NCBI GenBank assembly: GCA_028583405.1
Contig: CM053261.1
Location: 9,925,459 to 9,989,458, forward strand
Source: Pogonophryne albipinna
Taxonomy: Eukaryota; Chordata; Actinopteri; Perciformes; Artedidraconidae
Direction: 5' to 3'
DNA: 64,000 bases
In this document: positions 24 through 60,689 of the stretch, piece after piece
How the letters are laid out: each line of letters opens with the position of its first letter
Numbering within the stretch: the first letter of the stretch is position 1
Translations under genes and position numbers: made by a program
The notes under the pieces: model-generated
The model's input: only the letters and a program-made list of their open reading frames with translations
What the model was told of the DNA's origin: nothing
Databases searched by the model: none

Positions 24-4413
<4,390 letters not shown>

Positions 4414-5483: not shown

Positions 5484-5894
5484 TAGTGATGGGAATTCCG
5501 GCTCTTTTTAGTGAGCCGGATCATTTGGCTCGGCTCCCAAACGGCTCTTCATTTGACCACATATACCTTTTATAATTCAATCAAATTTAGCCCTGTTTCG
5601 ACTAATTATTTACATGTGTACACATATATAACTTAAATTATTCAATACATCTTTTGTACTGAAGTATTAAAGTAAAAATTACATTTTTAATATAAATGAT
5701 TTGCTGTGGTCAATTGTTTTCATTGCATTTACAGACCCTTAACTCTGATATCACCCAATGAATGCACTGACTTGCTTGTAGAACCATGCTACACAAAGCA
5801 GATAGCAACACATGTAAAAACTTAAGCATAGACATTTAAAAAAAGGACAGCTACTGTATCAACATTTTAAAGATATATATATATATATACATAT

Positions 5895-8850
5895 ATCACA
5901 CTCTCGACCTTGTTCAGACTTATGGTATTGAAATTGAGCAACTATTAGTCGAACCGCATAATCCTGCTTTATCCGACCATTTCTTAGTAACTTTTGAAGT
6001 ACCGTTACTAGACTACAAAGCATTAGTCAAAAGCTCCTGCAGCAGAAACCTATCTGTTAGTGCTATAGCCAAATTTAAGGAAGAGATTCCACCAATACTT
6101 AACTCGATAGCATGTCTGCATGTAGGGGAGGAAACTTATACAAAATGTACACCACCCCAAATTGATCATGTTGTTGATAGTGCTACAGATGCGCTGCGAA
6201 TAAAATTAGACTCTGTCGCTCCTTTGAAAAAGAAAATAAAACAACATAGATTAGCTCCATGGCATAATGCCGAAACCCGCAAAATAAAGCAAAAGTCGAG
6301 ACAACTTGAAAGGATATGGCGTTCCACTAAACTTGAAGAATCTCGTTTAATTTGGCATATTACTCTCAATGAATATAAGAAAGCACTGCGTAAAGCGAGA
6401 GCAGCTTACTACTCTTCATTAATAAATGAGAATAAGAATAATGCAAGATTTCTTTTCAGCACTGTAGCCAGGCTGACAGAGAGCCACAGCTCGATTGAGC
6501 CTTCTATTCCCATAGCACTCAGTAGTAATGATTTTATGGGCTTTTTTAACGATAAAATTGTTACTCTTAGAAACAAAATGAATGACCTCTTGCCTTTGAC
6601 CAGTATAGTGTTATCAACAGCTCCCGGAAATGTAAGCTCTAATATTACACTAGTAAACTAGAATGCTTTTCAGCCATAAACCTTGAACAATTAAATTCAA
6701 TGATTCTCTCTTCTAAACCATCAACGTGTATCTTAGACCCAATTCCAACTAAGCTGTTAAAGGAAGTTTTTCCATTAATTAGCACTTCTTTATTAAATAT
6801 TATGAATATGTCTTTATTATCAGGCTATGTTCCACAATCATTCAAAGGAGCAGTGATAAAACCGCTTCTTAAAAAGCACAACCTCAATCCAGAGGTTTTA
6901 GCCAACTATAGACCTATTTCTAATCTTCCGTTCCTCTCAAAAATTCTTGAGAAAGCGGTCGCAAAACAGTTGTGTGATTACTTAAAAAACAATGATTTAT
7001 TTGAAGATTTTCAGTCGGGCTTTAGAACACATCATAGCACAGAGACAGCTCTGGTTAAAGTCACAAATGACATTCTAATAGCCTCAGACAAGGGACTTGT
7101 CTCTATTCTTGTTTTGCTCGATCTCAGTGCTGCATTTGATACTATCGATCATGATATCTTATTACAAAGACTAGAGCACTTAGTTGGCATACAGGGAACT
7201 GTTTTAGGCTGGTTTAGGTCCTATCTATCTGAACGCTCTCAGTTTGTACGTGTCAACGATGAATCTTCCACGCAAACCAAAGTTAGCCATGGAGTGCCAC
7301 AGGGCTCAGTGCTCGGACCTATTTTGTTCACATTATATATGCTTCCGTTAAGCAATATTATAAGGAATCATTCTGTAAATGTTCATTGTTATGCGGATGA
7401 TACACAACTATATTTATCAATCAAGCCTGATGAAATTAATCATCTAAATAAAATTCAAGACTGCCTCAAGGACTTAAAAACGTGGATGACCTTAAACTTT
7501 TTGATGTTAAACACAACCAAAACTGAAGTTATTGTACTCGGCCCGAAGAATCTACGAAACAAATTATCTAAAGATATACTAACTATGGATGGCATTAATT
7601 TGGCCTCCAGTGAGACTGTAAGGAATCTTGGTGTTATATTTGATCAGGATTTATCCTTTAACGCCCACATAAAATCAATTTCAAGGACCGCCTACTTACA
7701 TCTACGTAACATTGCAAAAATCAGGCATATCTTGCCTCAAAACAATGCAGAGAAACTAGTCCATGCATTTGTTACTTCAAGGCTGGATTATTGTAACTCC
7801 TTATTATCAGGGTGTACCAAGAAGTCAGTTAAGTCGCTTCAGCTGATTCAAAATGCTGCAGCTCGTGTACTAACCAGTTAGAAAAATGGACCACATTACT
7901 CCTGTTCTGGCTGCCTTACACTGGCTCCCTATAGAACACAGGATAGAATTTAAAATTCTTCTTCTCGCCTACAAAGCCCTTAATGGGCAGGCGCCATCTT
8001 ACCTTAAAGAACTCATTATACCCTACTGTCCTACTAGGGCATTGCGTTCCAAGAATGCAGGGTTGTTGGTTGTTCCTAGAGTCTCTAAAAGTACAATGGG
8101 AGCCAGAGCCTTTTCTTATCAAGCTCCACATTTGTGGAATCAGCTTCCAGTTTGTGTTCAGGCGGCAGACACCCTATCCGTTTTTAAGAGTGCGCTTAAG
8201 ACCTTCCTTTTTGATAAAGCTTATAGTTAGGGCTGATTAGATTCAGCCCCTAGTTTTGCTGATATAGGCTTAGTTTGTCGGGGGACATCTTACTTCTTCC
8301 TTCTCTCTGTCTATACCTGTGTACTCTCATGTTCCGATTAACCCAGCTTCCCCAAATGTCTTTCTTTTTTGGGTCTATATACGCCGGGATTCGGAGTCAT
8401 GGATGATCCTGTTGCTGCGGTCCTGTGTCCTAGATCGCGAGCCCTGGATCTTGAGTCGTGGCTGTGGTCCTGGATCATAAGTCCTGGATGGATATCCTCG
8501 TGGATTCATCTTCCTATTATACACACATGCATTTCCAAACATTTGGACTACCTATGTTGCAAATGTATTATCTTTTCAATTTACACACGGCATCTATTGC
8601 ACGTCTGTCCGTCCTGGGAGAGGGATCCTTCCTCTGTTGCTCTCCCTGAGGTTTCTCCCATTTTTCCCTTTAAACTGTGGGGTTTTCTCCGGAAGTTTTT
8701 CCTTGTACGATGTGAGGGTCTAAGGACAGAGGGTGTCGTATTGTCATACTGATATTCTGTACAAACTGTGAAGTCCACTGAGACAAATGTAACATTTGTG
8801 ATATTGGGCTATATAAATAAACATTGATTGATTGATTGATATATACATAT
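5895..8850 (+). mobile_element. L2-clade LINE, copy 1, 5'-truncated
   Basis: Non-LTR retrotransposon in sense orientation, starting inside the region between endonuclease and reverse transcriptase and ending in a tail of GCTATATAAATAAA followed by (ATTG)n at about 8823-8840. The last bases (ATATATACATAT, 8839-8850) also occur at the left junction (about 5883-5894) and may be a target duplication, but the site lies in an AT repeat, so this is weak. A nearly identical copy lies on the other strand at 57195-60345. The clade is inferred from the RT wording and the short 3' microsatellite. Confidence 0.88.
6224..8230 (+). pseudogene. broken reverse transcriptase ORF of L2 LINE copy 1
   Basis: Three ORF blocks (6224-6661, 6700-7881, 7886-8230) together cover linker, reverse transcriptase and C-terminal region. 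RT landmarks are [30 protein letters not shown] (catalytic Asp block), [14 protein letters not shown] and [12 protein letters not shown] with the catalytic YADD. Against the copy at 57-60 kb, a 4-bp deletion near 6655 and another small deletion near 7880 break the frame. The endonuclease domain is missing because of 5' truncation, so this copy cannot move on its own. Confidence 0.88.
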
Positions 8851-15468: not shown

Positions 15469-16730
15469 TAGGGTGACCAGATGTCCCGCTTTGCGCGGGA
15501 CTGCACAGCATTTTCACGACTTTTGGTGCGTCTCGCAAATTGAGACGATGTCCCGCATATTTCATTTTGATTGGCTAAAACGCTTTTCTTTAAAATCAGA
15601 TTCATCCAATGGCTGTTGAGAAAGCAGGGAAGGCTATCATCACGGGGCTGTGTTTGCTGTCAATCAAACTGTAACACACGGCGGGTGCTGGTTAAGTGTT
15701 AACCAATGAGAGTAACTCACTCACACACACCCCCCCCGCGGCCCCCGCCAAACAACAACAACGATCGCAGGCGACGCAGCAGGTTATGGAAAATGGAGGA
15801 AACTGAAACTACAGCTAAGAAGAAAAGAAGATGCACATACAACAAAGACTGGGAAGACACTTACCCGTTGGTGAAGCCAGTGCAGGGCGACTCTCAGAGG
15901 GAGTTTTTGGCAATCTTTGCAAGAGTAATTTTTAAATTTCACATGGCGGTGAATAAGACGTCAAAAGACACAGAGAATGCGATTCTCACAAAACGTGTCG
16001 CTCAAAAAGAGACATCCCACTCTATGGAGACATTCCTACTCAAACCAAAAAATGATGGCCACTCAGACAAGGTAACAGCAGCAGAAATAACCAGTGTTTA
16101 CCATACAGTGCAACACTCCCAATCATACCGGTCAAATGACTGGTAACAAGCTAGCGCCGACCATTTTTCCAGACTCTGATATAGTAAAGAAAATGTCATG
16201 TGGTCGTACAAAAGCAGCGTCCATAATAACAGATGTGCTTGCCCCTGCCTCCGTGGAGAGTTGTTTGACAGAGTCAAAGACACCAGTGGTTCTAGGTGAC
16301 AAAATAGCCCACACACTGTGGGGGGGCCCACCTGCTGTTGCTGTGATGGACAAAACTGAAAGGTATTTTATTTTATGTATTATTATGTTTCTGTTCCCTC
16401 CTGGCCAGTTTTGATTTGTATTTATGGTTTTATTTTATCTATTAATTTATGTTGTGCCTACTTGTACAGGTAATACACTAGTTGAATTAAGAAGATGCAT
16501 TTCTAAACACTTGAAGTGAATAATGCCTGCTGCCTTGGTTAGCCTTAGTTTACTTTTCTTTATTAAGATACTAAATTGTTACTGCATTTTTACTTCACTT
16601 TCTGCTCCGTTATATATTTGTTAAGTTTTTTTTCCGGGGGTGGTGGGTGCTGTTGAGAGGGTGTCCCACATTGTCCCACACAACCATACTCCTTGTCCCA
16701 CATTTGGTTTGTTGGGATCTGGTCACCCTA
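15469..16730 (+). mobile_element. hAT C, copy 1: internally deleted derivative, target duplication AAGGGAAG
   Basis: Ends are TAGGGTGACCAGATGTCCCG and, inverted, TAGGGTGACCAGATCCCAAC. The left flank is AAGGGAAG (15461-15468). The right flank is the same 8 bp once the later insertion at 16734-17123 is removed (AAG at 16731-16733 plus GGAAG at 17132-17136). It contains the first part of the transposase ORF and the 3' end of the family, joined by a deletion of the middle: compared with copy 2 (18541-27198), the sequence corresponding to about 25160-26740 is missing. Confidence 0.88.
15775..16146 (+). pseudogene. hAT C copy 1 transposase fragment (damaged BED-type zinc finger)
   Basis: The N-terminal part (KMEETETTAKKKRRCTYNK) matches the transposase start of copy 2 at 24658. 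The zinc finger of copy 2 (CNLC with HRECDSH) is destroyed here: the cysteine pair reads AIFARV after indels and the histidines are lost. It then runs out of frame. A relic in a non-autonomous element, not a gene. Confidence 0.8.
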
Positions 16731-18540: not shown

Positions 18541-19548
18541 ACTCTTTGCGCGGGACTGTACAGCATTTTCACGACTTTTGGTGCGTCCCGCAAATTGAGA
18601 CGATGTCCCACATATTTCATTTCGATTGGCTAAAACGCTTTTCTTTAAAATCAGATTTATCCAATGGCTGTTGAGAAAGCAGGGAAGGCTATCATCACGG
18701 GGGTGTGTTTGCTGTCAATCAAACTGTAACACACGGCGGGTGCTGCCGGTCAAGTGTTAACCAATGAGAGTAACTCTCTCACACACCCCCCTGTGTTTGC
18801 TGTCAATCAAACTGTAACACACGGCGGGTGCTGCAGAGCCCTAGAGAGATAAGGGCTCTGGGGTGCTGGTCAAGTGTTAACCAATGAGAGTAACTCACTC
18901 ACACACTGACACACCCCCCCGCGGCCCCGCCAAACAACTAGTGATGGGAATTCCGATTCCCTTCGGGGACACAAATCTTTTGATTCAGTTCACTTGAAAG
19001 ATTTGTTCACTGATTCGTTCACCGGTTCGCGAACGACTTCTGGTGATTTGCACGTTCGCGAACGATTCGTCTTTGTACTTAATTCGTTCAGTGAGTCTTC
19101 ACTACTGCCGAAGTCCGTACAAGAAGTTTGCTGGCGTAAAATGTATGATATTAAAACACATTTTACACCTCACCTTGTTGCCCCATGAATTATGCTCTGG
19201 GAATAGGCTACATATTATTTAAGAAATATAATTGGCCATTGTTAAATCTCTCATAAATGTGTGCCTGACTATACGATGTATTACAGCAGGCTAGCACGTT
19301 ATACTTTCAAACCCATGCACGTACTATGTGGCCTAACTTAAATCCCAAAGCATTAAACTCCATTTGGCCGAGTTCAAAGTGAATAAAAAAATATATCCTC
19401 TACATCGGTGACGATTTATTCATATTCTATAGTATGTACCCATCTATGTTTACCTTTAGCTAGCGGCTAAGCTAGTGGGACGCTACGGAGCCCAGCTATC
19501 CGCCCTCTGAAGCTTTTAGGGCCGACAGGGAGAGGAGAATGTCCCGCT

Positions 19549-22500
19549 AGGGCGGGCCATACTATTTTTTTTTTCTAAATCGACCGAGAGGGGTGTTCAA
19601 ATAACGTAGTTTGGCGTGTAGAACACAAATCTGAAGACATTTTTCAATTTCAATAAACCTAAGCTACATCAATTTGCAGTTGAATATTGTCTATTTTTTG
19701 ATTATTTAGCTATTCTTCAGGAAAAAAGAGACTTAAGTTGGGGGGCTTTTATTTTGAAGTCAGGGCTTTTATTTTGAAGTCAGGGCTTTCATGTTCCTGT
19801 CTGACGTGAAAATTACAGGAAATGAAACGTTTTCAGTGTGAACTAGTTGAAATGGCTCAAGTCAAAACAAGGGCAAAATCGAATTCTCATTTGAGTAATC
19901 TTGTTGGCACTGGGCGAGAGCTGTTGGTGTCTGAACTGCCAACTTTGAGGGATATCCTGAGGTATGGCATCTACTTGAGGGATCAAAGTACAGATGATAG
20001 GAGGAACTACCCAGTGGACCAGCTGGTGGGTGACATCTTCCCTGGTCTGATTGGTCAGTGGTCCAAAGCGAATGCTCTTTTCAAGCCACCTGTTATAAAT
20101 GAAAAGGTGACCATCATGTCCAAGCTCAAGGAGGTCTGGAATCAGGCAGTGAAGTTTTCCCTTGGGAAGGGAAAACTTGATGCAAAAGAGAGGTTCAGTG
20201 TCAAGTTAGACCAACTATTTGATATTTTGACTTGCAAGTGTCAGATTAGCAGTTGTGAGAGGGGAGGCTGTGATGGCTGTGTGATTCAAGCCCACATGAA
20301 CTGTTGCTGCAGCAGAGAGAACAGGATTCCTTTAAAAGATCTTGCATACATCAAGGGACAGAAAGAGAAGGTTGGAAGTAAAGGACCCCACCAAATGGGG
20401 GCCCCTGATCTGCAGGAGCACAAGAGACAGGTGAGGACATTGGAAAGGCAGGGGATGGAAAACATGGCTGAGGAAAGGAGAAGGAGCAGGGAGGAAAATG
20501 CTGCAGCAGCAGACAAGGCAGCCAGGAAGGATGTTAAGAGATTTTTGGCAGATGGTGATGAGGATCTGGAATTGGAGAGTGGTTCTGAAGATGAGTTTGT
20601 CCCTGAAGTTGAGCTCTTCCCTGAAACTGAACCTGAGCCTGCAGCTTCAACAAAAGTGCAGAAAAACTATGACGATATTCCAAATATTGCGCTTGCTAGT
20701 GTAAGGTATGGCATAGGGCTGAGACCAACTGCAGCGATAGCAACTGCAGCTCTGATTGATGCAGGAATCATCACAGAAGACAACACAAGTAAAGTGATTG
20801 ATAAGAACAAGGTCAAGAGAGCACAGGAGAAGTTGATGAGAGAGCTGGGAGAAGAGTTTGAGGAGAAGTGCAGGGAGATGGGGGGGATCTCCTGCATCCT
20901 CTTTGATGGGCGGATTGACCTGACCAATGTGATGATGGAAGCTGAGGGCAGTGACCAATCTTTTCCTGCAAAGATCAAATAAGAACACTATAGTGTTGCT
21001 AGTGAGCCTGGCAGCAACTATCTGTTCCACTTTACCCCAGAGAAAGCAACTAAAGAGGACTCACATGCTGAGCAGATTGCTAAGGTCCTGTTGGCCTGGC
21101 TGAAAGAAAGGGGTTTTGATAAGACCTTATCGGCCATTGGAGGAGACTCAACTAATGTCAACACTGGTGTGAAAGCTGGGGTTATGCGAAAGCTGGAGCT
21201 GCACCTGGGGAGAAAGCTGGTGTGGTTGGTGTGCAACCTGCACACTGGTGAACTTCCCCTGCGCCATCTCATTGTTGGCCTTGATGGCCCTACTCTGTCA
21301 GACAGCAAATTATCTGGGCCAATAGGAAAGCTCCTTGATTCCGCTACAGACTTGGATATCAATCCAAACTTCACCCGGATCTTTGTTGGCCCTCCACTGA
21401 TCAAGCTGCCTGACAAGGTCATTCAAGATCTCTCAACTGATCAACACTATGGCTATAAAATGGTCTGTGCAGTCAGGGATGGAGTGTTTCCTGCAAGGCT
21501 GGCTCTGTTGGAGATTGGACCAGTAAACCACAGCCGCTGGCTCACCACAGCAAACAGACTTCTCAGGCTCTGGGTGTCAAAGCACAGACTTAAAGGAAAG
21601 AAACTGAAGAATCTACAATTGATTGTGGAATTCATCATTGGAGTGTATTATCCATGTTGGTTTAACGTGAAGGTCAAGCACTCCTGGATCGAAGGGCCTA
21701 GGCACATCCTGTTTCAGCTGGACTGCCTCAAGTCCCAGAGGAAGGAGGTTCTGGAACTTGTGATGCCAACTGTGAGAAGATCTGCTTGGTATGCCCACAG
21801 TGAAGCCATCCTCCAAACACTGCTGTGCTCTGAGGATCAGAAGGAGAGAATTGAGGGGGTGGGGAGAATCCTGGCCATTAGGGGAGAGGGGGACCCAGAC
21901 ACTCAGCTGGGGGACTCCTCTGTCAGGACCAGAAGGACTCCTGACATCAATTGTGATGCTTCCAGCATTGGGGACTTGATCAGCTGGTCAGAAGGTGTGT
22001 CAGAGCCACCTCTCACCTGCTTGCTAAGCACCTCGGAGGTGAAAAACTTCATCAAAACCCCCATGGAGGTACTAAACTGGCCTTGCCATACTCAAAGCAT
22101 TGAGAGGGTCGTTAAAATGGTGACCGAGGCTTCTGCTACGTACTTCTCACAGGAAAAGAGGGATGGAGGGATCAGAGCTCAGGAGACCAGCAGGAGACTG
22201 ATGTCCAAGAATGAGTCAAAGCAGGACTTGTGCCACCTGACAAAGTTCAGATCAAAGTCAGAAGATGTTTCTTTGTAATCTTATCCAGTTATACATATGC
22301 AGTTCACCTGTTAATAAATATGTAAAAATGATTTGGCTTTGTCAATATAAATGATTTCCCTTATATATTTTACTATCTTATATAGACGTTCGAAAGGGTA
22401 AAATTGCCAATTTAGAAATACAAAACGATGTAGCTTAGAGTTATCCTATCTAAAAAATAAGCTCATATTTGAATTCCCCATAGAAAAACACATAATTTTG

Positions 22501-22560
22501 ACACCCCTCATGTTAGGATTTCCTTCAGATTCATTTTGGCACCTGAGTATGACCCGCCCT
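19549..22560 (+). mobile_element. unclassified 3.0-kb DNA transposon with 11-bp target duplication
   Basis: Ends are AGGGCGGGCCATACT (19549-19563) and, inverted, AGGGCGGGTCATACT (22546-22560), 14 of 15 bases alike. A second inverted block, GAGGGGTGT followed by CAAAAT-like sequence, lies about 40-50 bp inside each end (19586 and 22509). The flanks are the same 11 bases, AATGTCCCGCT (19538-19548 and 22561-22571). Other copies of the host array (for example at 23535 and 23938) carry this 11-mer once and continue AACGCTG, so they show the empty site directly. It contains one long ORF. Eleven bases is longer than the 8 bp usual for hAT, P and KDZ elements and within the range reported for Mutator-like elements. 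Confidence 0.85.
19822..22278 (+). pseudogene. candidate transposase of an unassigned family (818 codons, one internal stop)
   Basis: One reading frame runs from ATG at 19822 to TAA at 22276, broken only by TAA at codon 387 (20980-20982); the next ATG in frame is 21091. A TTACAG acceptor-like site just before the ATG leaves room for a 5' exon. The N-terminal part has SELPTLRDILRYGIYLRDQ and a Cys/His cluster (CKCQ...CERGGCDGC...CCC, residues about 138-163). An acidic linker follows (about 240-275). The second half has features of RNase H-fold transposases of the hAT-like group: LFDGRID (D362), GGDSTN (D442), a C-x2-H motif CNLH (471-474), an RW motif (R572-W573) and a late SIERVVK (E761). The D-D-E assignment is inference. 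I recall similar uncharacterised proteins in invertebrate genomes, but cannot verify this here. Codon use and context give no hint of a host gene. Confidence 0.7.
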
Positions 22561-22571
22561 AATGTCCCGCT

Positions 22572-22932
22572 AATGCTGTGTGTGTGTGTTTCACATTAGC
22601 GGGACGCTATGGAGCTCAGGTATCCGCCATTTGAAGCTTTTAGGGCCGACAGGGGGAGGAGAATACAACGCTGTGTGTATTTATCGCTAAGCTAGCGGCT
22701 AAGCTAGCTGGACGCTACGGAGCCCAGCTATCCGCCCTCTGAAGCTTTTAGGGCCGACAGGGAGAGGAGAATGTCCCGCTAACGCTGTGTGTGTGTATTT
22801 CACATTAGCGGGACGCTATGGAGCTCAGGTATCCACCATCTGAAGCTTTTAGGGCCGACAGGGGGAGGAGAATACAACGACGTGTGTATTTATCGCTAAG
22901 CTAGCTGGACGCTACGGAGCCCAGCTATCCGC
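22572..22932. repeat. 105-bp monomer array, first block
   Basis: Monomers of about 105 bp alternate between two forms: one with GGACGCTACGGAGCCCAGCT, the other with GGACGCTATGGAGCTCAGG. Both contain GAAGCTTTTAGGGCCGACAG and GAGGAGAAT. The first half-monomer of this block lies left of the inserted transposon (about 19470-19548). Short GTGTGTG stretches join the units. Confidence 0.9.
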
Positions 22933-23543
22933 TAGTGATGGGAATTCCGATTCCCTTCGGGGACACAAATCTTTTGATTCAGTTCACTTGAAAGATTCGT
23001 TCACTGATTCGTTCACCGGTTCGCAAACGACTTCTGGTGATTTGCACGTTCGCGAACGATTCGTCTTTGTACTTAATTCGTTCAGTGAGTCTTCACTACT
23101 GCCGAAGTCCGTACAAGAAGTTTGCTGGCGTAACATGTATGATATTAAAACACATTTTACACCTCACCTTGTTGCCCCATGAATTATGCTCTGGGAATAG
23201 GCTACATATTATTTAAGAAATATAATTGGCCATTGTTAAATCTCTCATAAATGTGTGCCTGACTATACGATGTATTACAGCAGGCTAGCACGTTATACTT
23301 TCAAACCCATGCACGTACTATGTGGCCTAACTTAAATCCCAAAGCATTAAACTCCATTTGGCCGAGTTCAAAGTGAATAAAAAAATATATCCTCTACATC
23401 GGTGACGATTTATTCATATTCTATAGTATGTACCCATCTATGTTTACCTTTAGCTAGCGGCTAAGCTAGTGGGACGCTACGGAGCCCAGCTATCCGCCCT
23501 CTGAAGCTTTTAGGGCCGACAGGGAGAGGAGAATGTCCCGCTA
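22933..23543. repeat. second copy of the hAT E left end
   Basis: Matches 18939-19548 almost base for base, including the TAGTGATGGGAATTCC tip. Its left flank (CTATCCGC) is array sequence and does not match the right flank CAAACAAC, so it is an internal duplication and not an independent insertion. Confidence 0.9.
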
Positions 23544-24110
23544 ACGCTGTGTGTGTGTGTTTCACATTAGCGGGACGCTATGGAGCTCAGGTATCCGCCA
23601 TCTGAAGCTTTTAGGGCCGACAGGGGGAGGAGAATACAACGCTGTGTGTATTTATCGCTAAGCTAGCGGCTAAGCTAGCTGGACGCTACGGAGCCCAGCT
23701 ATCTGCCCTCTGAAGCTTTTAGGGCCGACAGGGAGAGGAGAATGTCCCGCTAACGCTGTGTGTGTGTATTTCACATTAGCGGGACGCTATGGAGCTCAGG
23801 TATCCACCATCTGAAGCTTTTAGGGCCGACAGGGGGAGGAGAATACAACGCTGTGTGTATTTATCGCTAAGCTAGCTGGACGCTACGGAGCCCAGCTATC
23901 CGCCCTCTGAAGCTTTTAGTGCCGACAGGGAGAGGAGAATGTCCCGCTAACGCTGTGTGTGTGTGTTTCACATTAGCGGGACGCTATGGAGCTCAGGTAT
24001 CCGCCATCTGAAGCTTTTAGGGCCGACAGGGGGAGGAGAATACAACGATGTGTGTATTTATCGCTAAGCTAGCTGGACGCTACGGTTCCGGTATCCGTCC
24101 TCTTTATTGC
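23450..24110. repeat. 105-bp monomer array, second block
   Basis: Six further monomers of the same two alternating forms (GAAGCTTTTAG at about 23503, 23606, 23714, 23815, 23908 and 24010). The dimer period is about 205-215 bp. It ends at TACGGTTCCGG near 24085, where the sequence changes towards the TG run. Confidence 0.88.
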
Positions 24111-24136
24111 GGACAGGTTGAGGAGGATGTCCCGCT

Positions 24137-24372
<236 letters not shown>

Positions 24373-24645
24373 GGAGCTCAGGTGAGAGGGCTCTGATTAC
24401 AGTACACTGTAGGAAACAGTTCTGAACTGTTTCCGCCAGTTCTTTAAGTTCGTCGTTCGCGAACAGCTTCTCTTTAGCTTTTGGCGGAAGGCGGCGACTC
24501 AAACAAACGAATCGTTTTGTGGGAGGAATCAGTTCATCTCGTTCACTTCAAAGATTCGTTCAAAAAGAACGATTCGTTCAAAAAGAACGAATCGAACGAC
24601 CCATCACTACAAACAACGAACAACGAAAGTCAAAGTCAATAACAC

Positions 24646-26579
24646 ATGCGACGCAGCAGGTTATGGAAAATGGAGGAAACTGAAACTACAGCTAAGAAGA
24701 AAAGAAGATGCACATACAACAAAGACTGCGAAGACACTTACCCGTGGGTGAAGCCAGTGCAGGGCGACTCTCAGAGAGTTTTTTGCAATCTTTGCAAGAG
24801 TACTTTTTCAATTTCACATGGCGGTGAATACGACGTCAAAAGACACAGAGAATGTGATTCTCACAAGAAACGTGTCGCTCTAAAAGAGACATCCCACTCT
24901 ATGGAGACATTCCTACTCAAACCAAAAAATGATGGCCACTCAGACGAGGTAACAGCAGCAGAAATAACCAGTGTTTACCATACAGTGCAACACTCCCAAT
25001 CATACCGGTCAAATGACTGGTAACAAGCTAGCTCCGACCATTTTTCCAGACTCTGAGATAGTAAAGAAAATGTCATGTGGTCGTCCATAATAACAGATGT
25101 GCTTGCCCCTGCCTCTGTGGAGAGTTGTTTGACAGAGTTAAAGACACCAGTGGTCCATAGTGACAAAATAGCCCACACACCATTTTTTTAAGTGGCTTCA
25201 GATGCTTCAAATCATGGCACTATAAAACTCTTCTCACTGTCTCTGAGATATTGGACCCCAGAGTTGGGTTTGAAAAGCAAGATCCTTGATTTCTATGAGG
25301 ATAGTGATGAGTCAGCTGCTACCATACACGGCCAGATTACAAGCAAGCTAGAAGAAAATGGTCTGCAACCTGACATGATTTCAGCATACACTGCCGACAA
25401 TGCAAGTGTAAACTACGGGAGAAACAATTCCGTTTTCCAGAAGCTAAAAGCAGACAACAGTGGCATCATTAAGGCTAACTGTATGGCCCACATAGTGCAC
25501 AACAGTGAAAGGATGCTGGAGACAGGTTGAACATTGACATTGAGCTAGTAGTGAACAAAACATTCAGTCACTTTTCCTCATCTGCAAAACGTACAGAAGA
25601 ATTGAAAGCAGTGTTCACCTTTGTGGAAGAGGAATATCAGGATGTGCGGAGACACGTACCCACAAGATGGTTGAGTCTGTGGCCTGCTGTCAAGAGGCTA
25701 CATGACAGCTGGAGAGCTATCAAGAGCTACTTCTTGTCACTGGGAGAGGATAAGTGCCCAAATTCACTGTGGCAGCTGTTAAAAAATGATGAGGATGGTG
25801 ATGGGAAACCCCTAGAGCTACAGGTGTACCTGTCCTTCCTCAATAATGTGCTGAAAATCTTCCACGATGTTGTGCTGCTATTGGAGAAAGAGGACAGGGC
25901 CGTATGTGAGCTATATGACATGATGCTCACTCTCAAGACAAAGCTCCAACAACGACAGATTGATTCCTTCTTTGGAATGGAGACCAGTGCTATCCTCCAA
26001 CAGTTTCCAAACCAAAAGGCAGCAGCAATCAAACATGATCTTTCCAAGTTCTACCAGGCTGCTCTCAACTACCTTGAGAAGTGGTATGATTTCACAGACA
26101 ACAACTACCAGAAGAATGTTGCAAGCTTGGCACTGAAGAGCAAGTTCACATTCTCCCATCTCTGTGATGCAGTGGAGGTCCTACAGTTAAGGGGGAAACT
26201 AGACATGGATGAACTGTATGATGAATACTGTGTGACTTTGCCACGCCAGCAGGACGTTGTGGAGAGAAGAGCTCCTGTTGTGGAGAAGTGGTCCACCTTG
26301 CTTCAAGGCACAAACACACCAAATCTGACTGCTGTGGCATCCTTTCTCTTAAGCATCCCCATCACTAATGCTTCGTTAGAGACAGTGTTTTCCCTCATGA
26401 CGGCAGCGTGGACTGACCAGTGGAACCGGTGCTCTGTGGAGCTTATCAAGTCTGAAATTCAAGTCAAGACCAACTTTGAATACAGTTGTAAGGAATTCTA
26501 CACCTATGCACTCAAGGAGAAGGCCTTATTAGAAGCTGCGCGCTCAAGCAAAAAGTACAAAGTCAAGAAGAGCATCTAA
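24646..26579 (+). pseudogene. hAT C copy 2 transposase (BED zinc finger, hAT core and dimerisation region), frameshifted
   Basis: Blocks at 24646-25023, 25192-25530 and 25527-26579. The first has a BED-type finger (CNLC...HRECDSH). The second has YTADNASVNYG and a C-x2-H motif (CMAH). The third has VPTRWLSLWPAVKRL (the RW motif) and ends in the hATC-like TNASLETVFSLM. These are the marks of a hAT transposase related to those that gave rise to host ZBED genes. Stops near 25021 and 25191 and a frameshift at about 25528 break it; it is missing in copy 1. Domestication is unlikely, because the copy still lies between element ends and is broken. Confidence 0.85.
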
Positions 26580-47100: not shown

Positions 47101-49619
47101 TTCTTCAATGCTCTACTGGCTACAGGACTGACACTTACATTTCTTTTTCTGTTGAATTTATGTCTTTTTCTTTTTGAGGCACGGTGCTGAATACAAAGAG
47201 CAAGAACACACAGCATTTATAGCATCGTGAAAGTGTTAGGGCCATGTTTCTACTGAACAGTCTGACGGCTGAGGTGGAGAGGGGGTCCTGGTTTTACTAC
47301 ACTGGCAGGATGACTGGAAGCTATTTCAGGAGGAGGGATGAAAGCTAAACGCTATTTAATTGAAGATGTTAGTGTGTTAGGATGACTTGAATGAAATTAA
47401 AAAAGAGTGAAGGAAGTGTACCTCCATCTGCCTCTCCTCATTACTCATCACAGCATACTCCCCACCCGACTCCTGATACATAGTTTCTGTAAAAACACAA
47501 ATTCATTCAGGAAAAATAAGTGTATATTATACACAAAGATCACAATAAAACTAACTGTAATGGACAATATCTCACTGCAGGATCTCATGTGACCAAAACT
47601 GTTAAAAAATAATATGAGGCTTTGTTTTTATTTAAATCAGTTTAGCACCTTGTGCTTCATCCATCTCGTTTGTTCCTATCTTGTCCATCAGATCGTTGGA
47701 GCTCCACTTGGTGATCTCTTTGGCAAACATCTCCTCGTTGTCAGAAAAGTCCTCTGCAAAATACACAGAGGGCCTCTGATATAAATAATCTATCTCTGCA
47801 CGTCAGAGCAATAATATCTAATAACACAGACCCAAATAAATGTTAATCCCACGATTTAAACGTGTAAAGCCATATTTATTCCTTTATTGTTGGTGTTTTT
47901 AAATTAGCTTAATAGATAGAATTACTTGATTATCTTTCTGTCAGCCATTTTGAAGGGCAAGGCCGTTTGTTGTAGGTTACATTTATTGAATCTAATATAA
48001 CAACGTAATGTTCCTCTTTTAGAGGTCCGGAACATAAAATGCATTCATTTAAGAAAAGAAAATCATCTGAACTTCATGGCAAAATAACAACTTCAACAAA
48101 CAAAAAAGGATTTAGAATGAAACATTGAGATTACCTTGATATATTATATTAATCATCCCAAAGAGAGATATGATAGAAGCGAATTATCTAATCCAATGTG
48201 TTCATGTTGTAAATCCAGTACAAGGCAAAAGGCAGTACAAAATAGTCATGTTGCATAACACATAACACATATAGTGCATGTTTAAAATACAAAATAAAGC
48301 CGGTGTTGTATTATTTATCATGAAGAAAGAGAAGATTTTTTACCGTGAGCATCGAAGAACTCGTCGTCTGTGCTGTCATCTGAGTCTCGGGCGATGCTCT
48401 GCATCCTCCACTCTGAAATGTTCTGGTGAGACGGACTCCCTGTATAAACATATTAAACAAAACAGGAAGTAGTGATGTTAAAGCTGGGAGTAGTAAGGTT
48501 GTATAATGCACTTATCCAAAGTCAGTGTATTAATAACAGTGGTTGGCATGTCCTCAGTTTGGAGAAAAAGTATGGGCATTATAGTGCAGTGGACGGGGGT
48601 GGAGGAAAATGTATTGTAGCCACATAGAAAATAATCAATATCAGTTTAAGTGTACGCTATGTTTGGAATATTTCCACTGCTTTACCTTTTCTGTCAGACA
48701 GTCCGTTTCTGTTATCACAGCTCTCTAAAAAGCACAGATAGACTCCATTGATTGGAGATGTGCTAACTCTTTATCTACTGCAGGTAATACACTGCATTTG
48801 GAGAATACCTCATACAGCTCAACTCCACTTCAAAACATCTGAACAATGCCTTTTATCTTCAGAGAAACAACAAGATATTTGCTAAAATAAATAAAAAATA
48901 AATGATCAATCAATCAAATTTCATTTATATAGCCTTACAGTATATCGCAATTACAAATTTGTCTCAGGGGGCTTTACAGTGCTAACAGCATACAACATCA
49001 TCTGTCATTAGAGCCCCCCAGTGTACAAGAAAAAACCACCAAGGAGACCCCACAATTAAGCGGGAAAATCAGGGAGCGCAACAGAGGAAGGGTCTATCTC
49101 CCAGGACGGACATACACGCAATAAATGTCGTGTTTATAGATAAAAAAAGAGAATGATACTTTTCTGAAATAAAAGTACAACATGGATAATCCAAATGCAT
49201 GTGAACGTATATACAAAAAATGTATCCAGTAGTAATATTCTAGGGGCCACAAAAAAATATTGATATAAATAAATGAGGTAAATAGTAATTCTCACCGCCT
49301 CTCTTGGACGACCTGTTGGAGGACTTGGAGGAGGTGGACCACTGCTTGGTGAGCTCCCCTCGTGTCTCCAGGGAGTCTCCCAGCTTCCCCCCCTCTCCCT
49401 CTGCAGCTGAGCCCCCGGCCTGAGCCCCCTGCTCCTGGTCCTGGCTGACGGACGTCTCTGCCCCCCCCTCCTCAGTCAGGCTGAACTGGGCCATCTTCTT
49501 GGCTAAAGCCAGCTGCGTCTCCAGCTCCAGCAGCCGGATGTCCTCGATGGTGAGGCCGTACCACTCGTCCTGCCAGCACCACGCCTGTCTGTGGGCGCGC
49601 ACCATTACCTTACGCAGGC
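35178..49619 (-). CDS. pitpnm2: membrane-associated phosphatidylinositol transfer protein 2 (Nir3), exons from end of PITP domain to stop
   Basis: Exons, low-high, from 3' to 5': 35178-35543, 36160-36288, 36373-36556, 37980-38129, 38218-38366, 38450-38566, 38979-39095, 39816-39964, 40792-41034, 41132-41287, 41912-42043, 42122-42292, 43026-43201, 43667-43881, 44132-44251, 45071-45260, 45359-45512, 46435-46525, 47422-47486, 47649-47753, 48344-48439, 49296-49619. All phases agree over about 1198 codons. Domains in order: end of the PITP domain ([14 protein letters not shown]); a FFAT motif EFFDAHED, which binds VAP proteins at the ER, split between 48344 and 47753; a lipase-like segment ([22 protein letters not shown]); the DDHD region ([16 protein letters not shown] to [14 protein letters not shown]); and LNS2 ([36 protein letters not shown]). 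The C-terminus ([21 protein letters not shown]) fits PITPNM2 better than PITPNM1. The family moves PI and phosphatidic acid between ER and plasma membrane during phosphoinositide signalling. About 230 N-terminal residues are outside the recognisable sequence. Long introns hold LINE fragments or nothing recognisable. Confidence 0.92.
36622..37545 (-). mobile_element. LINE 3' fragment in a pitpnm2 intron
   Basis: On the minus strand it encodes [19 protein letters not shown] (with gaps), then [33 protein letters not shown] and [17 protein letters not shown], the C-terminal region of a CR1/L2/Rex1-group non-LTR reverse transcriptase; the clade cannot be settled by eye. The 3' end is at 36622-36640 with a (CTA)n tail preceded by CTGGATAAATAAAGG. 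It is 5'-truncated near 37545, beyond the RT catalytic centre, and cannot be active. Confidence 0.85.
48904..49150 (-). mobile_element. old L2 LINE 3' end in a pitpnm2 intron
   Basis: The minus strand ends in (TTGA)n after a TATATAAATGAAAT-type tail and contains the same CCCTGAT/TTCTTGTACACTG and CCGTCCTGGGAGATAGACC words as the 3' ends of the copies at 8600-8840 and 57195-57470, but with many differences. It is a diverged, severely 5'-truncated relative of the same family. Confidence 0.8.
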
Positions 49620-50387
49620 CTGGAGGACAGCAGTGAGGATTTATTGGCATTTTAGAGAGGAAAGAAGCATGTTTCTGGGATATATATTCTGGGTCAATTT
49701 AAGTGGATTAACCTTAAAATAAAGACTTTATTTGGTTCAATCTAGAATTGTATATACGATGTATATTTTGTAAATTGTGTCATTTTTATAATTTGTTTAT
49801 CTTTAATATTTTTTATTCATGCTTCTTAGGTAACATTAAGCTGTCTTTGGCTCTTTTCTGCTGTTACAGTGTAAATGTCCCCTCTGTGGGACTAATAAAG
49901 ATATTCTGATTCTGCCACAGAGTCACTGTTTAAACAAAGGTATAGGTTTGGTTTGAAATATGAGGAAGGGCTATTCAATCATTAACAAATTAAATCATAT
50001 TAAAAAAGGCAATGCAATTTAGCAAATAGCGCATTATAATGCTTAAGGAATTCAAAAGGTGGCCTGACAGTCTCTATTTATTGCAATAAGTCTGGTTTCT
50101 TTGATAGAAAACTGAGATACTGCTTTAATAGATTAGACAACTCAAACCAGAAACTGCAAGGAAAGAAAAAATAGATTAAATAAATACATCATGCAAACAC
50201 TTTAAGACTCAAATACAGTATTCAGTAATAATAAAATCTATTATTTAAGTTTTGTAACTATTTGATTAGAAATTCTGACAGTGCTGTAATATTATACTGT
50301 GTAATATATGATATAAAGTATTTTCCAAAATTAAGTTAAATTATTCATAACTCTAGTGGAGCAATCTGATTTATTTTGTTCCCGTTT
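49620..50387. other. probable pitpnm2 intron, nothing recognised
   Basis: AT-rich, without ORFs or repeat ends. It is placed in an intron because the exon ending at 49619 has a 3' splice acceptor and the PITP exons before it are still missing. Confidence 0.5.
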
Positions 50388-55023: not shown

Positions 55024-56963
55024 GCGCTTGAGAGAGAATCTTCTCCACCCTCTTGGATGCCCTCAAAGCCCCTTCCCCCTCCTCCCTTCTGTCAAGCGAC
55101 TTTGTTAACCATTTTGAAAAAAAGGTTGATGATATTCGCTCTTCTTTTTCTGACTCACCTTTACTCACCGCTGGGTCACCAGACCCACCTTTCACCCACA
55201 CACTAACCTCCTTTTCCCCTCTCTCTCCAAGTGAGGTTCTTACCCTCATTACCTCTGCCCGTCCTACCACCTGTCCTCTGGACCCTATCCCTTCAAACCT
55301 CCTTCAGACTATCGCTCCTGATATTCTACCGTTTCTTACCCATTTCATCAACACTTCTCTACCTTCTGGTCACTTTCCAAACAGTCTCAAGGAGGCAAGA
55401 GTAAACCCTCTTCTAAAGAAACCCACTCTCAACCAGTCCGATGTTATAAACTACAGGCCTGTCTCTCTCCTCCCGTTCCTGTCTAAAACACTTGAACGCG
55501 CTGTCTTTAAACAACTCTCCTGTTATCGCCATCAGAACAACCTTCTGGATCCGCACCAGTCTGGTTTCAAGGCAGGTCACTCCACAGAAACTGCCCTCCT
55601 TGCTGTCACTGAGGAACTGCACACTGTCAAAGCAGCATCCCTCTCCTCTGTCATCATCCTGTTGGACCTGTCTGCTGCATTCGACACGGTGAATCATCAG
55701 ATCCTCCTTCGCACTCTCCAAGAACTTGGAGTTTCAGGCTCTGCACTTTCCCTCATCATCTCATACCTCAAAGACCGCACCTACAGGGTAACTTGGAGAG
55801 GGTCCGAGTCCGACCCTTGTCAATTAACTACAGGGGTCCCTCAGGGCTCTGTTCTTGGTCCCCTCCTCTTCTCCTTGTACACAAACTCGCTCGGATCAGT
55901 CATTAGCCCGCATGGTTTTTCATACCACTGCTACGCTGACGACACCCAATTAATTCTGTCCTTTCCCCGCTCAGAGACCCAGGTCGTCGCACGCATCTCT
56001 GCTTGTCTAGCTGACATCTCTCAGTGGATGTCTGCTCACCACCTCAAGCTCAACCTTGACAAGACTGAACTGCTTTTCCTTCCGGGAAAAGATTGTCCCA
56101 CTCTTGACCTAACAATCAACATCGGCACCTCTGTTGTTTCCCCGACTCAGACTGCAAGGAATCTGGGTGTGACCCTAGATAACAAACTGTCCTTCACTGC
56201 AAACATCGCTGCTACAACCCGCTGTTGTAGATACACGCTTTACAACATCAGGAGGATACGTCCCCAGCTGACCCAGAAAGCGACGCAGGTTCTAGTCCAG
56301 ACTCTTGTCATCTCACGCCTAGACTACTGCAACTCCCTCCTGGCTGGTCTACCTGCATGTGCCATCCGACCTCTGCAGCTCATCCAGAATGCAGCTGCTC
56401 GTCTGGTCTTCAACCTTCCTAAATTCTCCCACACCACGCCGCTCCCTTCACTGGCTTCCGGTAACTGCTAGAATCCACTTCAAGACAATGGTACTTGCGT
56501 ACCATGCTGCGAATGGATCTGGCCCTTCCTACATCCAGGACATGGTTAAACCGTACACCCCAGCACGTGCACTCCGCTCTGCATCAGCCAAACAGCTCGC
56601 TGCACCCTCACTGCGAGGGGGACCCAAGTTCCCATCAGCAAAAACACGTGGGTTTGCTATCCTGGCTCCAAAATGGTGGAATGAGCTCCCCATTGACATC
56701 AGGACAGCAGAAAGCTTACACACCTTCCGGCGCAGACTGAAAACTCATCTCTTTCGACTCCACTTCGAGCGATAGAATTACTAACAAAGCACTTATATAC
56801 TAATAAAGGACTGGCTTATCTAAAGCCAGTTGAGTAGCACTTGAAATGTTTTTGCTCTATGAAACCTGATGTACATATATGATTCTGTTTTCTTCAAGTT
56901 TGGTCGAACGCACTTATTGTAAGTCGCTTTGGATAAAAGCGTCAGCTAAATGCAATGTAATGT
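55024..56963 (+). mobile_element. L2-clade LINE of a second subfamily, 5'-truncated
   Basis: RT and C-terminal region followed by a tail with TTGTAAGTCGCTTTGGATAA and ending AATGCAATGTAATG. This tail is shared with the SINE at 27859-28027. It lies inside the DIRS element, in the same orientation. No target duplication was seen at the junctions. Confidence 0.88.
55026..56775 (+). pseudogene. LINE reverse transcriptase, one frameshift
   Basis: ERIFSTLLDALK opens a frame that continues through [47 protein letters not shown] and [13 protein letters not shown] (catalytic YADD) to a deletion near 56435. The rest (RSLHWLPVTARIHFK to RRRLKTHLFRLHFER) is in another frame and ends at 56775. Apart from this one lesion and the lost endonuclease the RT is well kept, so the insertion is fairly young. 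Confidence 0.9.
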
Positions 56964-57194: not shown

Positions 57195-60100
57195 TAATCA
57201 ATCAATCAATCAATCAATGTTTATTTATATAGCCCAATATCACAAATGTTACATTTGTCTCAGTGGACTTCACAGTTTGTACAAAATATCAGTATGACAA
57301 TACGACACCCTCTGTCCTTAGACCCTCACATCGTACAAGGAAAAACCTCCGAAGAAAACCAACAGTTTTAAAGGGAAAAATGGGAGAAACCTCAGGGAGA
57401 GCAACAGAGGAGGGATCCCTCTCCCAGGACGGACAGACGTGCAATAGATGCCGTGTGTAAATTGAAAAGATAATACATTTGCAACATAGGTAGTCCAAAT
57501 GTTTGGAAATGCATGTGTGTATAATAGGAAGATGAATCCACGAGGATATCCATCCAGGACCTATGATCCATGACCACAGCCACGACTCAAGATCCAGGGC
57601 TCGCGATGCAGGACACAGGACCGCAGGATCATCCATGACTCCGGATCCCAGCGTATATAGACACCAAAAAGAAAGAAATTTGGGGAAGCTGGGTTAATCG
57701 GAACATGAGAGTACACAGGTATAGACAGAGAGAAGGAAGAAGTAAGATGTCCCCCGACAAACTAAGCCTATATCAGCAAAACTAGGGGCTGAATCTAATC
57801 AGCCCTAACTATAAGCTTTATCAAAAAGGAAGGTCTTAAGCGCACTCTTAAAAACGGATAGGGTGTCTGCCGCCCGAACACAAACTGGAAGCTGATTCCA
57901 CAAATGTGGAGCTTGATAAGAAAAGGCTCTGGCTCCCATTGTACTTTTAGAGACTCTAGGAACAACCAACAACCCTGCATTCTTGGAACGCAATGCCCTA
58001 GTAGGACAGTAGGGTATAATGAGTTCTTTAAGGTAAGATGGCGCCTGCCCATTAAGGGCTTTGTAGGCGAGAAGAAGAATTTTAAATTCTATCCTGTGTT
58101 CTATAGGGAGCCAGTGTAAGGCAGCCAGAACAGGAGTAATGTGGTCCCTTTTCCTAACTCTGGTTAGTACACGAGCTGCAGCATTTTGAATCAGCTGAAG
58201 CGACTTGACTGACTTCTTGGTACACCCTGATAATAAAGAGTTACAATAATCCAGCCTTGAAGTAACAAATGCATGGACTAGTTTCTCTGCATCGTTTTGA
58301 GGCAAGATATGCCTGATTTTTGCAATGTTACGTAGATGGAAGTAGGCGGTCCTTGAAATTGATTTTATGTGGGCATTAAAGGATAAATCCTGATCAAATA
58401 TAACACCAAGATTCCTTACAGTCTCACTGGAGGCCAAATTAATGCCATCCATAGTTAGTATATCTTTAGATAATTTGTTTCGTAGATTCTTCGGGCCAAG
58501 TACAATAACTTCAGTTTTGGTCGTGTTTAACATCAAAAAGTTTAAGGTCATCCACGTTTTTAAGTCCTTGAGGCAGTCTTGAATTTTATTTAGATGATTA
58601 ATTTCATCAGGCTTGATTGATAGATATAGTTGAGTATCATCTGCATAACAATGAACATTTACGGAATGATTCCTTATAATATTGCCTAACGGAAGCATAT
58701 AATGTGAACAAAATAGGTCCGAGCACTGAGCCCTGTGGCACTCCATGGCTAACTTTGGTTTGCGTGGAAGATTCATCATTGACACGTACAAACTGAGAGC
58801 GTTCAGATAGATAGGACCTAAACCAGCCTAAAGCAGTTCCCTGTATGCCAACTAAGTGCTCTAGTCTTTGCAATAAGATATCATGATCGATAGTATCAAA
58901 TGCAGCACTGAGATCGAGCAAAACAAGAATAGAGACAAGTCCCTTGTCGGAGGCTATTAGAATGTCATTTGTGACTTTGACCAGAGCTGTCTCTGTGCTA
59001 TGATGTGTTCTAAAGCCAGACTGAAAATCTTCCAATAAATCATTGTTTTTTAAGTAATCACACAACTGTTTTGCGACTGCTTTCTCAAGAATTTTTGAGA
59101 GGAACGGAAGATTAGAAATAGGTCTATAATTGGCTAAAACCTCTGGATCGAGGTTGTGCTTTTTAAGAAGCGGTTTTATCACTGCTACTTTGAATGATTG
59201 TGGAACATAGCCTGATAATAAAGACATATTCATAATATTTAATAAAGAAGTGCTAATTAATGGAAAAACTTCCTTCAACAGCTTAGTTGGAATTGGGTCT
59301 AACATACACGTTGATGGTTTAGAAGAGAGAATCATTGAATTTAATTGTTCAAGGTTAATGGCTGAAAAGCATTCTAGTTTACTATCTAGTGTAATATTAG
59401 AACTTACGTTTCCGGGAGCTGTTGATAACACTATACTGGTCAAAGGCAAGAGGTCATTAATTTTGTTTCTAACAGTAACAATTTTATCGTTAAAAAAGCA
59501 CATAAAATCATTACTACTGAGTGCTATGGGAATAGAAGGCTCAATCGAGCTGTGGCTCTCTGTCAGCCTGGCTACAGTGCTGAAAAGAAATCTTGCATTA
59601 TTCTTATTCTCATCTATTAATGAAGAGTAGTAGGCTGCTCTCGCTTTACGCAGTGCTTTCTTATATTCATTGAGAGTAATATGCCAAATTAAACGAGATT
59701 CTTCAAGTTTAGTGGAACGCCATATCCTTTCAAGTTGTCTCGACTTTTGCTTTATTTTGCGGGTTTCGGCCTTATGCCATGGAGCTAATCTATGTTGTTT
59801 TATTTTCTTCTTTTTCAAAGGAGCAACAGAGTCTAATTTTATTCGCAGCGCATCTGTAGCACTATCAACAACATGATCAATTTGGGGTGGTGTACATTTT
59901 GTATAAGTTTCCTCCCCTACATGCAGACATGCTATCGAGTTAAATATTGGTGGAATCTCTTCCTTAAATTTGGCTATAGCACTAACAGATAGGTTTCTGC
60001 TGCAGGAGCTTTTGACTAATGCTTTGTAGTCTAGTAACAGTACTTCAAAAGTTACTAAGAAATGGTCGGATAAAGCAGGATTATGCGGTTCGACTAATAG

Positions 60101-60345
60101 TTGCTCAATTTCAATACCATAAGTCAGAACAAGGTCGAGAGTGTGATTATAGCAGTGGGTTGGTTTATTTACACTGACAGAAACCAACATAATCTAATAT
60201 AGAGTTAAATGCAACAGTAAGGCTATTTTTATCATCGTCAACATGAATATTAAAGTCACCTACGATAATTACTTTATCTGTTTTAAGTACCAAAGTTGAT
60301 AAAAACTCAGAGAATTCTGATAAGAACTTAACATCTGTATGGAGT
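57195..60345 (-). mobile_element. L2-clade LINE, copy 2, with end of endonuclease domain
   Basis: Opposite orientation to copy 1 (5895-8840), nearly identical where they overlap, and longer at the 5' side: the minus strand near 60250 reads VIIVGDFNIHVDD, the GDFN motif of the APE-type endonuclease. The 3' tail is (ATTG)n at 57197-57217. The 5' end is truncated inside the endonuclease. Confidence 0.88.
57805..60190 (-). pseudogene. LINE copy 2 endonuclease linker, RT and C-terminal ORF, one frameshift
   Basis: A 517-codon block (58637-60190) runs from the end of the endonuclease through [30 protein letters not shown] and [15 protein letters not shown] 2-bp deletion near 58700 shifts the frame, and the block 57805-58791 continues with [12 protein letters not shown] and the C-terminal region. 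The lesions differ from those of copy 1, so the two copies were inactivated independently. Confidence 0.9.
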
Positions 60346-60689
60346 CAGATCAGTCTCAATATTAATAAATTCTCACAGAAGGATTCACAAATGTATTTTG
60401 CGATTTATATATAAATGACTCTCCACAACAATATCTCTCAATGCACTCACAAATATTTATTGTTGTATATAAATGTACAAAAAATTGGCATTTAAACTGC
60501 TTTTTATTAATTCAAAGACGGCTCTGAATTAATAATCAAATATGTTTCCTTTCTTTACTACTGGATGAAATTACAAAATGTACCCATAATTTTCCTCATG
60601 CTAGTATAGCCACATAAAAGTATCAAACCACCTGTTAAAATGCACCAGAACACAGGAAATCTATTTTTTTTCGTGGGGGAGGACCCCCA
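60346..60689. other. AT-rich remnant, possible right part of a hAT element
   Basis: Contains GTTAAAATGCACCAGAACAC and GGGGGAGGACCCCCACATCC, which resemble 3' ends of fish hAT elements. It directly precedes the DIRS RNase H sequence, so its insertion or an associated deletion may have removed the reverse transcriptase. Confidence 0.35.

What the first reader, a model, noticed from the sequence alone, without database searches (positions are those of the whole stretch)
19549..22560. A DNA transposon of no evident superfamily: 15-bp ends, 11-bp target duplication, one 818-codon transposase-like ORF
Seen: inverted ends AGGGCGGGYCATACT, subterminal inverted GAGGGGTGT blocks, and an exact 11-bp duplication AATGTCCCGCT whose empty form is visible several times in the surrounding array. 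The ORF has one stop codon only. Known: hAT, P and KDZ elements make 8-bp duplications; Mutator-like elements make 8-11 bp. Inference: the protein has hAT-like marks (C-x2-H, RW, late Glu in SIERVVK) plus an N-terminal Cys/His cluster, yet the duplication length does not fit hAT, so it may be a separate branch of this transposase group.
Basis: partly seen in the sequence, partly recalled or inferred. Interest (0 to 1): 0.9.

Follow-up and report, generated by a model that had tools for sequence, protein, structure and literature searches.

The report
Unclassified hAT-like DNA transposon in fish
A fish genome carries a recently inserted jumping gene whose transposase belongs to a large animal protein family that the searched domain and structure libraries do not recognise by sequence; its predicted fold resembles that of hAT transposons, but its sequence falls outside them.

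Summary
Joining the flanks, less one duplication copy, restores a neighbouring 971-bp repeat unit, gap-free at 99.25% over 400 bp. The ends also share a degenerate 110-bp subterminal inverted block. The 11-bp duplication is an upper bound: the outer T...A pair fits 9-11 bp, and 8 bp is not strictly excluded. No second copy could be fetched.

The transposase belongs to a large animal family (icefish, Aldrovandia, crab, Hydra, insects, metagenome contigs) with no convincing Pfam, NCBIfam or PDB sequence match. The AlphaFold model of an 88%-identical relative (pLDDT 86) is an RNase H-like DDE core with a helical insertion, closest to Hermes (hAT). D, D, C-x2-H, RW and E are kept in 70-72 of 72 rows. 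A profile comparison with a hAT from this window beats all 60 shuffles but stays weak (17%). The hAT dimerisation domain was not found.

Best reading: a cut-and-paste transposon of a separate, superfamily-rank hAT-like lineage. I found no paper describing it; Repbase and Dfam were not available.

The parts
19549..22560 (+). DNA transposon, 3012 bp (19548-22561 if the duplication is 9 bp)
   Evidence: Inverted ends, flanking duplication and gap-free empty site
19538..19548 (.). Left copy of target duplication, maximal reading AATGTCCCGCT (9-bp reading 19539-19547)
22561..22571 (.). Right copy of target duplication (9-bp reading 22562-22570)
19549..19563 (+). Left terminal inverted repeat, 15 bp, 14/15 complementary to the right (16 with the outer T)
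22546..22560 (-). Right terminal inverted repeat
19588..19697 (+). Left subterminal inverted block, holds GAGGGGTGT (19588-19596) and CTAAGCTACATC (19659-19670)
   Evidence: 67% over 110 bp, blastn E 0.001; score 38 against shuffle maximum 23 of 500
22400..22509 (-). Right subterminal inverted block, holds both motifs inverted (22501-22509, 22427-22438)
19822..22278 (+). Transposase frame, 818 codons, one internal stop (TAA at 20980-20982)
   Evidence: relatives of 796-804 aa cover 98% of it
20233..20310 (+). Cys/His cluster, residues 138-163, probable zinc site (inferred)
   Evidence: Of seven Cys columns examined, four are kept in 71-72 of 72 rows; the other three (33, 36 and 35 of 72) sit in a segment gapped in half of the rows
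20905..20907 (+). D362, first catalytic Asp (inferred)
   Evidence: 72 of 72 rows; on strand 1 of the model
21145..21147 (+). D442, second catalytic Asp (inferred), in GGDSTNVNTG
   Evidence: 72 of 72 rows; just after strand 4; aligned with the hAT D-N-A-x-V-N-Y-G motif
21232..21243 (+). C471-x2-H474 motif after strand 5
   Evidence: C 70 of 72, H 72 of 72
21535..21540 (+). R572-W573 (HSRWLT) in the helical insertion
   Evidence: 72 of 72 rows each
22102..22104 (+). E761, catalytic Glu (inferred), in HTQSIER
   Evidence: 70 of 72 rows, one L, one gap; on a late helix of the model
23343..23742 (+). Unfilled paralogue of the insertion site
   Evidence: 99.25% gap-free to the joined flanks

Best explanation
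A cut-and-paste DNA transposon of a separate, superfamily-rank lineage whose transposase shares deep ancestry with hAT. Shown: one insertion with inverted ends, subterminal inverted blocks and a 9-11 bp duplication; [quoted passage not shown] full-length relatives in animals. Inferred: the N-terminal zinc cluster and helical domain binds the subterminal blocks, the DDE core cuts both ends and joins them across a staggered 9-11 bp cut, and host repair of the gaps makes the duplication. As in Hermes, the RW tryptophan may help in target joining. This copy has a stop codon and would need a relative's protein to move.
Confidence: 0.7

Rival explanations
1. A very divergent branch inside the hAT superfamily, with an 8-bp or slightly longer duplication and hAT mechanics.
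For: Hermes is the closest fold. The motifs D-S-T-N/D-N-A-x-V-N, C-x2-H, R-W-L-[ST] and E-R have recognisable hAT counterparts by eye; the window's own hAT has PTRWLSLW. The profile signal exceeds all 60 shuffles; a hAT profile scores one family member (P0134) at 14.7 bits, E 0.0006 for an assumed library of 1000. Read as TAGGG..., the ends fit the hAT end consensus (recalled). hAT groups with 5-, 6- and 7-bp duplications are accepted (PMC12730594, passages).
Against: The hAT dimerisation domain is not among the listed matches; PMC3985635 (passages) reports it in the families of that RNase H clade other than P elements. No BED finger was recognised. A 14.7-bit score would not be significant in a large database. 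An 8-bp reading needs chance matches at three bases.
Confidence: 0.25
2. A member or sister of the Mutator (MULE/Rehavkus) group, which makes 8-11 bp duplications.
Against: No MULE profile among the listed Pfam matches. Hermes aligns over 361 residues against 263 for ISCth4. The inverted ends are short, although the degenerate subterminal block lengthens them.
Confidence: 0.08
3. A lineage already catalogued in Repbase or Dfam under a name not visible here, so an ordinary new copy of a known element (this can hold together with any of the other readings).
For: The family is large (103 proteins, 417, both from capped candidate sets) and occurs in sequenced insects, Hydra and fish, so curators may have met it. 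Repbase and Repbase Reports were not within reach of the tools.
Against: Ten paper searches gave no description of it in the listings or in the passages looked at. No relative listed carries a precomputed transposase domain or a transposase name.
Confidence: 0.3

Closest known systems
hAT superfamily (Hermes)
   Same: RNase H-like DDE core with a helical insertion between strand 5 and the catalytic Glu (here predicted); C-x2-H and RW motifs; subterminal repeats besides short inverted ends; Cys/His-bearing N-terminal part.
   Different: No hAT dimerisation-domain match, no BED finger recognised, sequence likeness only at profile level around the second Asp, apparent duplication 9-11 bp instead of 8.
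P element / THAP9
   Same: DDE core with an insertion after strand 5; Foldseek E 8e-4 to 6p5a.
   Different: No P-element or THAP profile among the listed Pfam matches; P elements make 8-bp duplications (recalled).
Mutator-like elements (MULE, Rehavkus)
   Same: 8-11 bp duplications (PMC6446971, passages); ISCth4 (IS256 kin, recalled) is the second-best fold.
   Different: No MULE profile among the listed Pfam matches; shorter aligned core.
KDZ (Kyakuja, Dileera, Zisupton)
   Same: Zisupton is a fish DNA transposon superfamily (title cited in PMC12730594); KDZ proteins carry Cys clusters (recalled).
   Different: No KDZ profile among the listed Pfam matches; 7-8 bp duplications (PMC12730594, passages).

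Membership tests
hAT superfamily | DDE triad in an RNase H-like core with helical insertion before the Glu | tested here: met
   (predicted model of a relative, not a solved structure)
hAT superfamily | C-terminal hAT dimerisation domain (PF05699) | tested here: not met
   Not among the matches listed for P0001 or for 44 and 33 rows (25 of 30 and 25 of 31 families shown); control hAT in the window matches at 4.1e-8
hAT superfamily | N-terminal BED zinc finger | tested here: inconclusive
   No BED finger among listed Pfam matches; a conserved Cys/His cluster exists; N-terminal model has no convincing PDB match; some hAT groups use other fingers (PMC3985635, passages)
hAT superfamily | 8-bp target duplication (7, 6 and 5 bp in hAT7, hAT6, hAT5) | tested here: inconclusive
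   One copy; 9-11 bp most natural, 8 bp only with asymmetric ends
hAT superfamily | Transposase profile converges with hAT transposases | tested here: inconclusive
   hhalign probability 4-19% yet above 60 shuffles; HMM cross-scores at most 14.7 bits; only one hAT subgroup was at hand
Mutator-like (MULE) | MULE transposase profile | tested here: not met
   No listed match
Mutator-like (MULE) | 8-11 bp duplication | tested here: inconclusive
   Compatible in one copy
P element | P/THAP transposase profile | tested here: not met
   No listed match; Foldseek E 8e-4 to the P transposase is fold likeness only
KDZ / Zisupton | KDZ transposase profile | tested here: not met
   No listed match
New superfamily (Repbase rule) | Transposases do not converge with another superfamily at E below 0.005 in iterated PSI-BLAST | tested here: inconclusive
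   Rule seen in passages of PMC4455052. Two rounds of the large search listed only unnamed kin (103; 120 of 417 shown); no full iteration possible

The most novel reading that the evidence does not exclude
An undescribed superfamily of animal cut-and-paste transposons: a hAT-fold transposase with its own N-terminal zinc and helical end-binding domain and no hAT dimerisation domain, making 9-11 bp duplications, spread over fishes, crustaceans, insects and cnidarians, with recent horizontal movement between marine fishes and crustaceans.
Probability: 0.4. Interest if true: 0.78.

Novelty: new variant of a known kind. Interest (0 to 1): 0.62.

Why it matters
Much annotation rests on profiles, and this family matches none of those tried, so its copies are likely to be labelled 'unknown repeat' or 'hypothetical protein' (the names seen are of that kind). 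A lineage with a hAT-like core but a different N-terminus and perhaps a longer target stagger would be a natural comparison for what sets duplication length in the hAT/P/Mutator group. Full-length relatives without a stop exist (796-804 aa), and a 674-aa crab protein that is 83% identical over 67% of the query suggests recent spread between marine animals, if it is not contamination.

Tried and rejected
Other copies: relatives were sought in viral contigs with A1 (21 candidate stretches, 0 relatives) and A3 (29, 0), in genome contigs with A1 (14, 0) and A3 (54, 1), and in phage records with P0002 (none). The one genome contigs locus, L033, is a 3.9-kb scaffold of a bacterial MAG with a short fragment at its end beside other frames; I took it for a contaminating or chimeric end and did not use it. 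The 15-mer end pattern in viral contigs gave 32 stretches; I did not examine them and take them for chance. blastn of the element over the window found no further copy. The window's own genome was never reached. So replication of ends and duplication failed entirely.

Duplication length: I considered 8 bp (needs three chance base matches), 9, 10 and 11 bp; unresolved.

Papers: ten searches, of which two showed only part of the papers found (30 of 71, 40 of 45) and one found none. I saw passages only of PMC12730594, PMC10368747, PMC8230255, PMC10294476, PMC3985635, PMC12477816, PMC4455052 and PMC6446971; other papers only as titles and abstract starts in listings. The paper on the catalytic domain of all superfamilies (PubMed 21518873) is not held. 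The hAT end consensus, P-element duplication length, IS256 kinship of ISCth4 and KDZ Cys clusters are recalled.

Full report
What is there. The 3012-bp segment 19549-22560 is bounded by 15-bp inverted repeats (AGGGCGGGCCATACT / AGGGCGGGTCATACT, 14 of 15 complementary). It lies in a tandem array whose unit is repeated downstream: two 300-nt stretches 3994 bp apart are 99% alike, and 3994 = 3012 + 11 + 971, so the unit is 971 bp. Joining 200 bp of each flank with one 11-mer removed matches the unfilled unit at 23343-23742 over 400 bp without a gap at 99.25%. The 11-mer AATGTCCCGCT occurs six times in the window, twice beside the element and four times unfilled. The insertion is therefore real and, since the neighbouring unit lacks it, probably younger than the unit's duplication.

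How long is the duplication? The base outside the left end is T and that outside the right end is A, and the repeat finder gives a 16-bp inverted repeat that includes them. The event can be read as AGGG...CCCT with 11 bp, as TAGGG...CCCTA with 9 bp, or as 10 bp. Eight bp needs asymmetric ends and three chance base matches. With one copy 9-11 bp is the honest range.

The ends. Beyond the terminal repeat, a 110-bp block (19588-19697 against 22509-22400) is inverted at 67% identity (blastn E 0.001). Its local alignment score is 38, against a median of 11 and a maximum of 23 in 500 dinucleotide shuffles. In Hermes, BED domains bind subterminal repeats of the left end (PMC10368747, passages); that these blocks are binding sites here is inference.

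The protein. One frame, 19822-22278, encodes 818 residues with a single stop at 20980-20982. A search of about 5.8 billion proteins, scoring 7994 candidates, gave 103 relatives, several 796-804 aa long over 98% of the query. Named hosts: Chaenocephalus aceratus (96% over 62% of the query), Aldrovandia affinis (84% over 75%), the crab Chionoecetes opilio (83% over 67%), Penaeus vannamei (71% over 20%, in a fused gene model) and Hydra vulgaris (three proteins, 45-54% over 15-85%). A second profile search from ten distant members gave 417 proteins at E up to 0.1, of which 120 were listed, four of them already in the first list; hosts include Daktulosphaira, Diabrotica and Brassicogethes. None of the listed relatives carries a Pfam transposase domain. 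The two groups are one family: hhalign 100% over 726 columns, 31% identity.

Known families. For the window protein the only Pfam match up to E 10 is DUF6248 at E 3. For 44 rows (the window protein among them) and for 33 rows of the second group the best E-values among listed families are 0.017 and 0.0039, neither a transposase; the only hAT-related entry is PF14372 in one of 44 rows at 0.028 (25 of 30 and 25 of 31 families shown). NCBIfam, a library for prokaryotes, gave nothing for 3 of 3; the PDB by sequence gave only matches I take for chance. As a control, the broken hAT at 25509-26579 in the same window matches the hAT dimerisation domain at 4.1e-8.

Conservation. In 72 rows over 650 aa from both groups (the window protein included; three shorter rows dropped): first Asp 72, second Asp 72, Glu 70, C of C-x2-H 70, H 72, R and W of RW 72 each, and four paired Cys of the N-terminal cluster 71-72; three further Cys columns (33-36 of 72) lie in a segment that is gapped in half of the rows. 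PMC8230255 (passages) says that Trp319 in the Hermes insertion acts in target joining; that the RW Trp here plays the same part is inference.

How near to hAT? I built a hAT profile from 16 of the 92 proteins found with the window's own hAT. hhalign gives probability 4%, 19% and 17% with all 72 rows. By the program's own scale this is not significant. But the score of 39 exceeds all 60 block-shuffled profiles (median 17, maximum 29.4), and the aligned piece sets GGDSTNVNTG on the hAT D-N-A-x-V-N-Y-G motif. Plain HMM cross-scores reach 14.7 bits at most (E 0.0006 for an assumed library of 1000), which would be lost in a large database. I read this as common ancestry of the core at great distance. 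PMC3985635 (passages) puts hAT families and P elements in one RNase H clade, with the hAT dimerisation domain absent only from P elements; this family would be another branch without it. By Repbase's rule, superfamilies must not converge in PSI-BLAST at E below 0.005 (PMC4455052, passages). Nothing here converged, but full iteration was not possible.

Age and spread. In a 41-row tree the window protein sits with the icefish protein (100/99) on an end branch of 0.002, inside a nine-row group (100/100) that holds Aldrovandia and the crab Chionoecetes without resolved order. The neighbouring hAT is 98% identical to a protein of Pogonophryne albipinna, so the host is probably a notothenioid fish (inference). 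A crab protein as close as another fish's suggests horizontal transfer; contamination of the crab assembly was not excluded.

Mechanism. Shown: insertion, ends, duplication range, frame, conserved triad. Predicted: the fold. Inferred: binding of the subterminal blocks by the N-terminal zinc/helical domain; DDE cleavage of both ends; joining to target strands 9-11 bp apart; gap repair. Whether flank hairpins form, as in hAT, cannot be told from sequence. This copy is broken by its stop codon.

Print status. Ten searches gave no description of this family in their listings or in the passages I looked at. Repbase, Dfam, Repbase Reports and most subscription papers are out of reach, so 'undescribed' is a statement about what I could search.

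Noticed in passing
window 24643-26579 and 15703-16213: Broken hAT element beside the array: a frame (25509-26579) matching Dimer_Tnp_hAT at 4.1e-8 and, by eye, a zinc-finger-like N-terminal piece upstream; 15963-16213 and 24840-25090 are 92% alike, so a second partial copy lies upstream.
   Followed up: partly
window, about 24104-24425: A long TG/CA dinucleotide run, open in frames of both strands, at the end of the array.
   Followed up: no
window 18938-24237: Tandem array with 971-bp higher units built of alternating repeats of about 100 bp that hold AATGTCCCGCT and its partial inverse; the element sits in one unit.
   Followed up: partly
window 5840-7881, 57805-60193, 55032-56471: LINE-like frames: by eye two pieces of one family on opposite strands, and a third frame matching RVT_1 (1.3e-37; the first frame, 5840-6661, gave no Pfam match).
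   Followed up: no
window 60639-63588: Frames that look (by eye) like a DIRS-type retroelement with a tyrosine-recombinase-like part; the two frames tested in Pfam gave no match at E 0.01.
   Followed up: no
window 465-908 and 49240-49698: Probable host exons: kinesin motor domain (9.5e-20) and the C-terminal end of a phosphatidylinositol transfer protein (2.5e-12).
   Followed up: no
L033:3627-3896: Fragment of the same transposase family (44% identity) at the end of a 3.9-kb scaffold in an Anaerolineae MAG, next to bacterial-looking frames; probably contamination or a chimeric scaffold end.
   Followed up: partly
proteins P0100 and P0101: Pieces of this transposase are fused into predicted genes: a GABA-receptor-like model in Aldrovandia and a multi-domain model with a neurotransmitter-gated channel domain in Penaeus; perhaps annotation artefacts, perhaps captured exons.
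   Followed up: no
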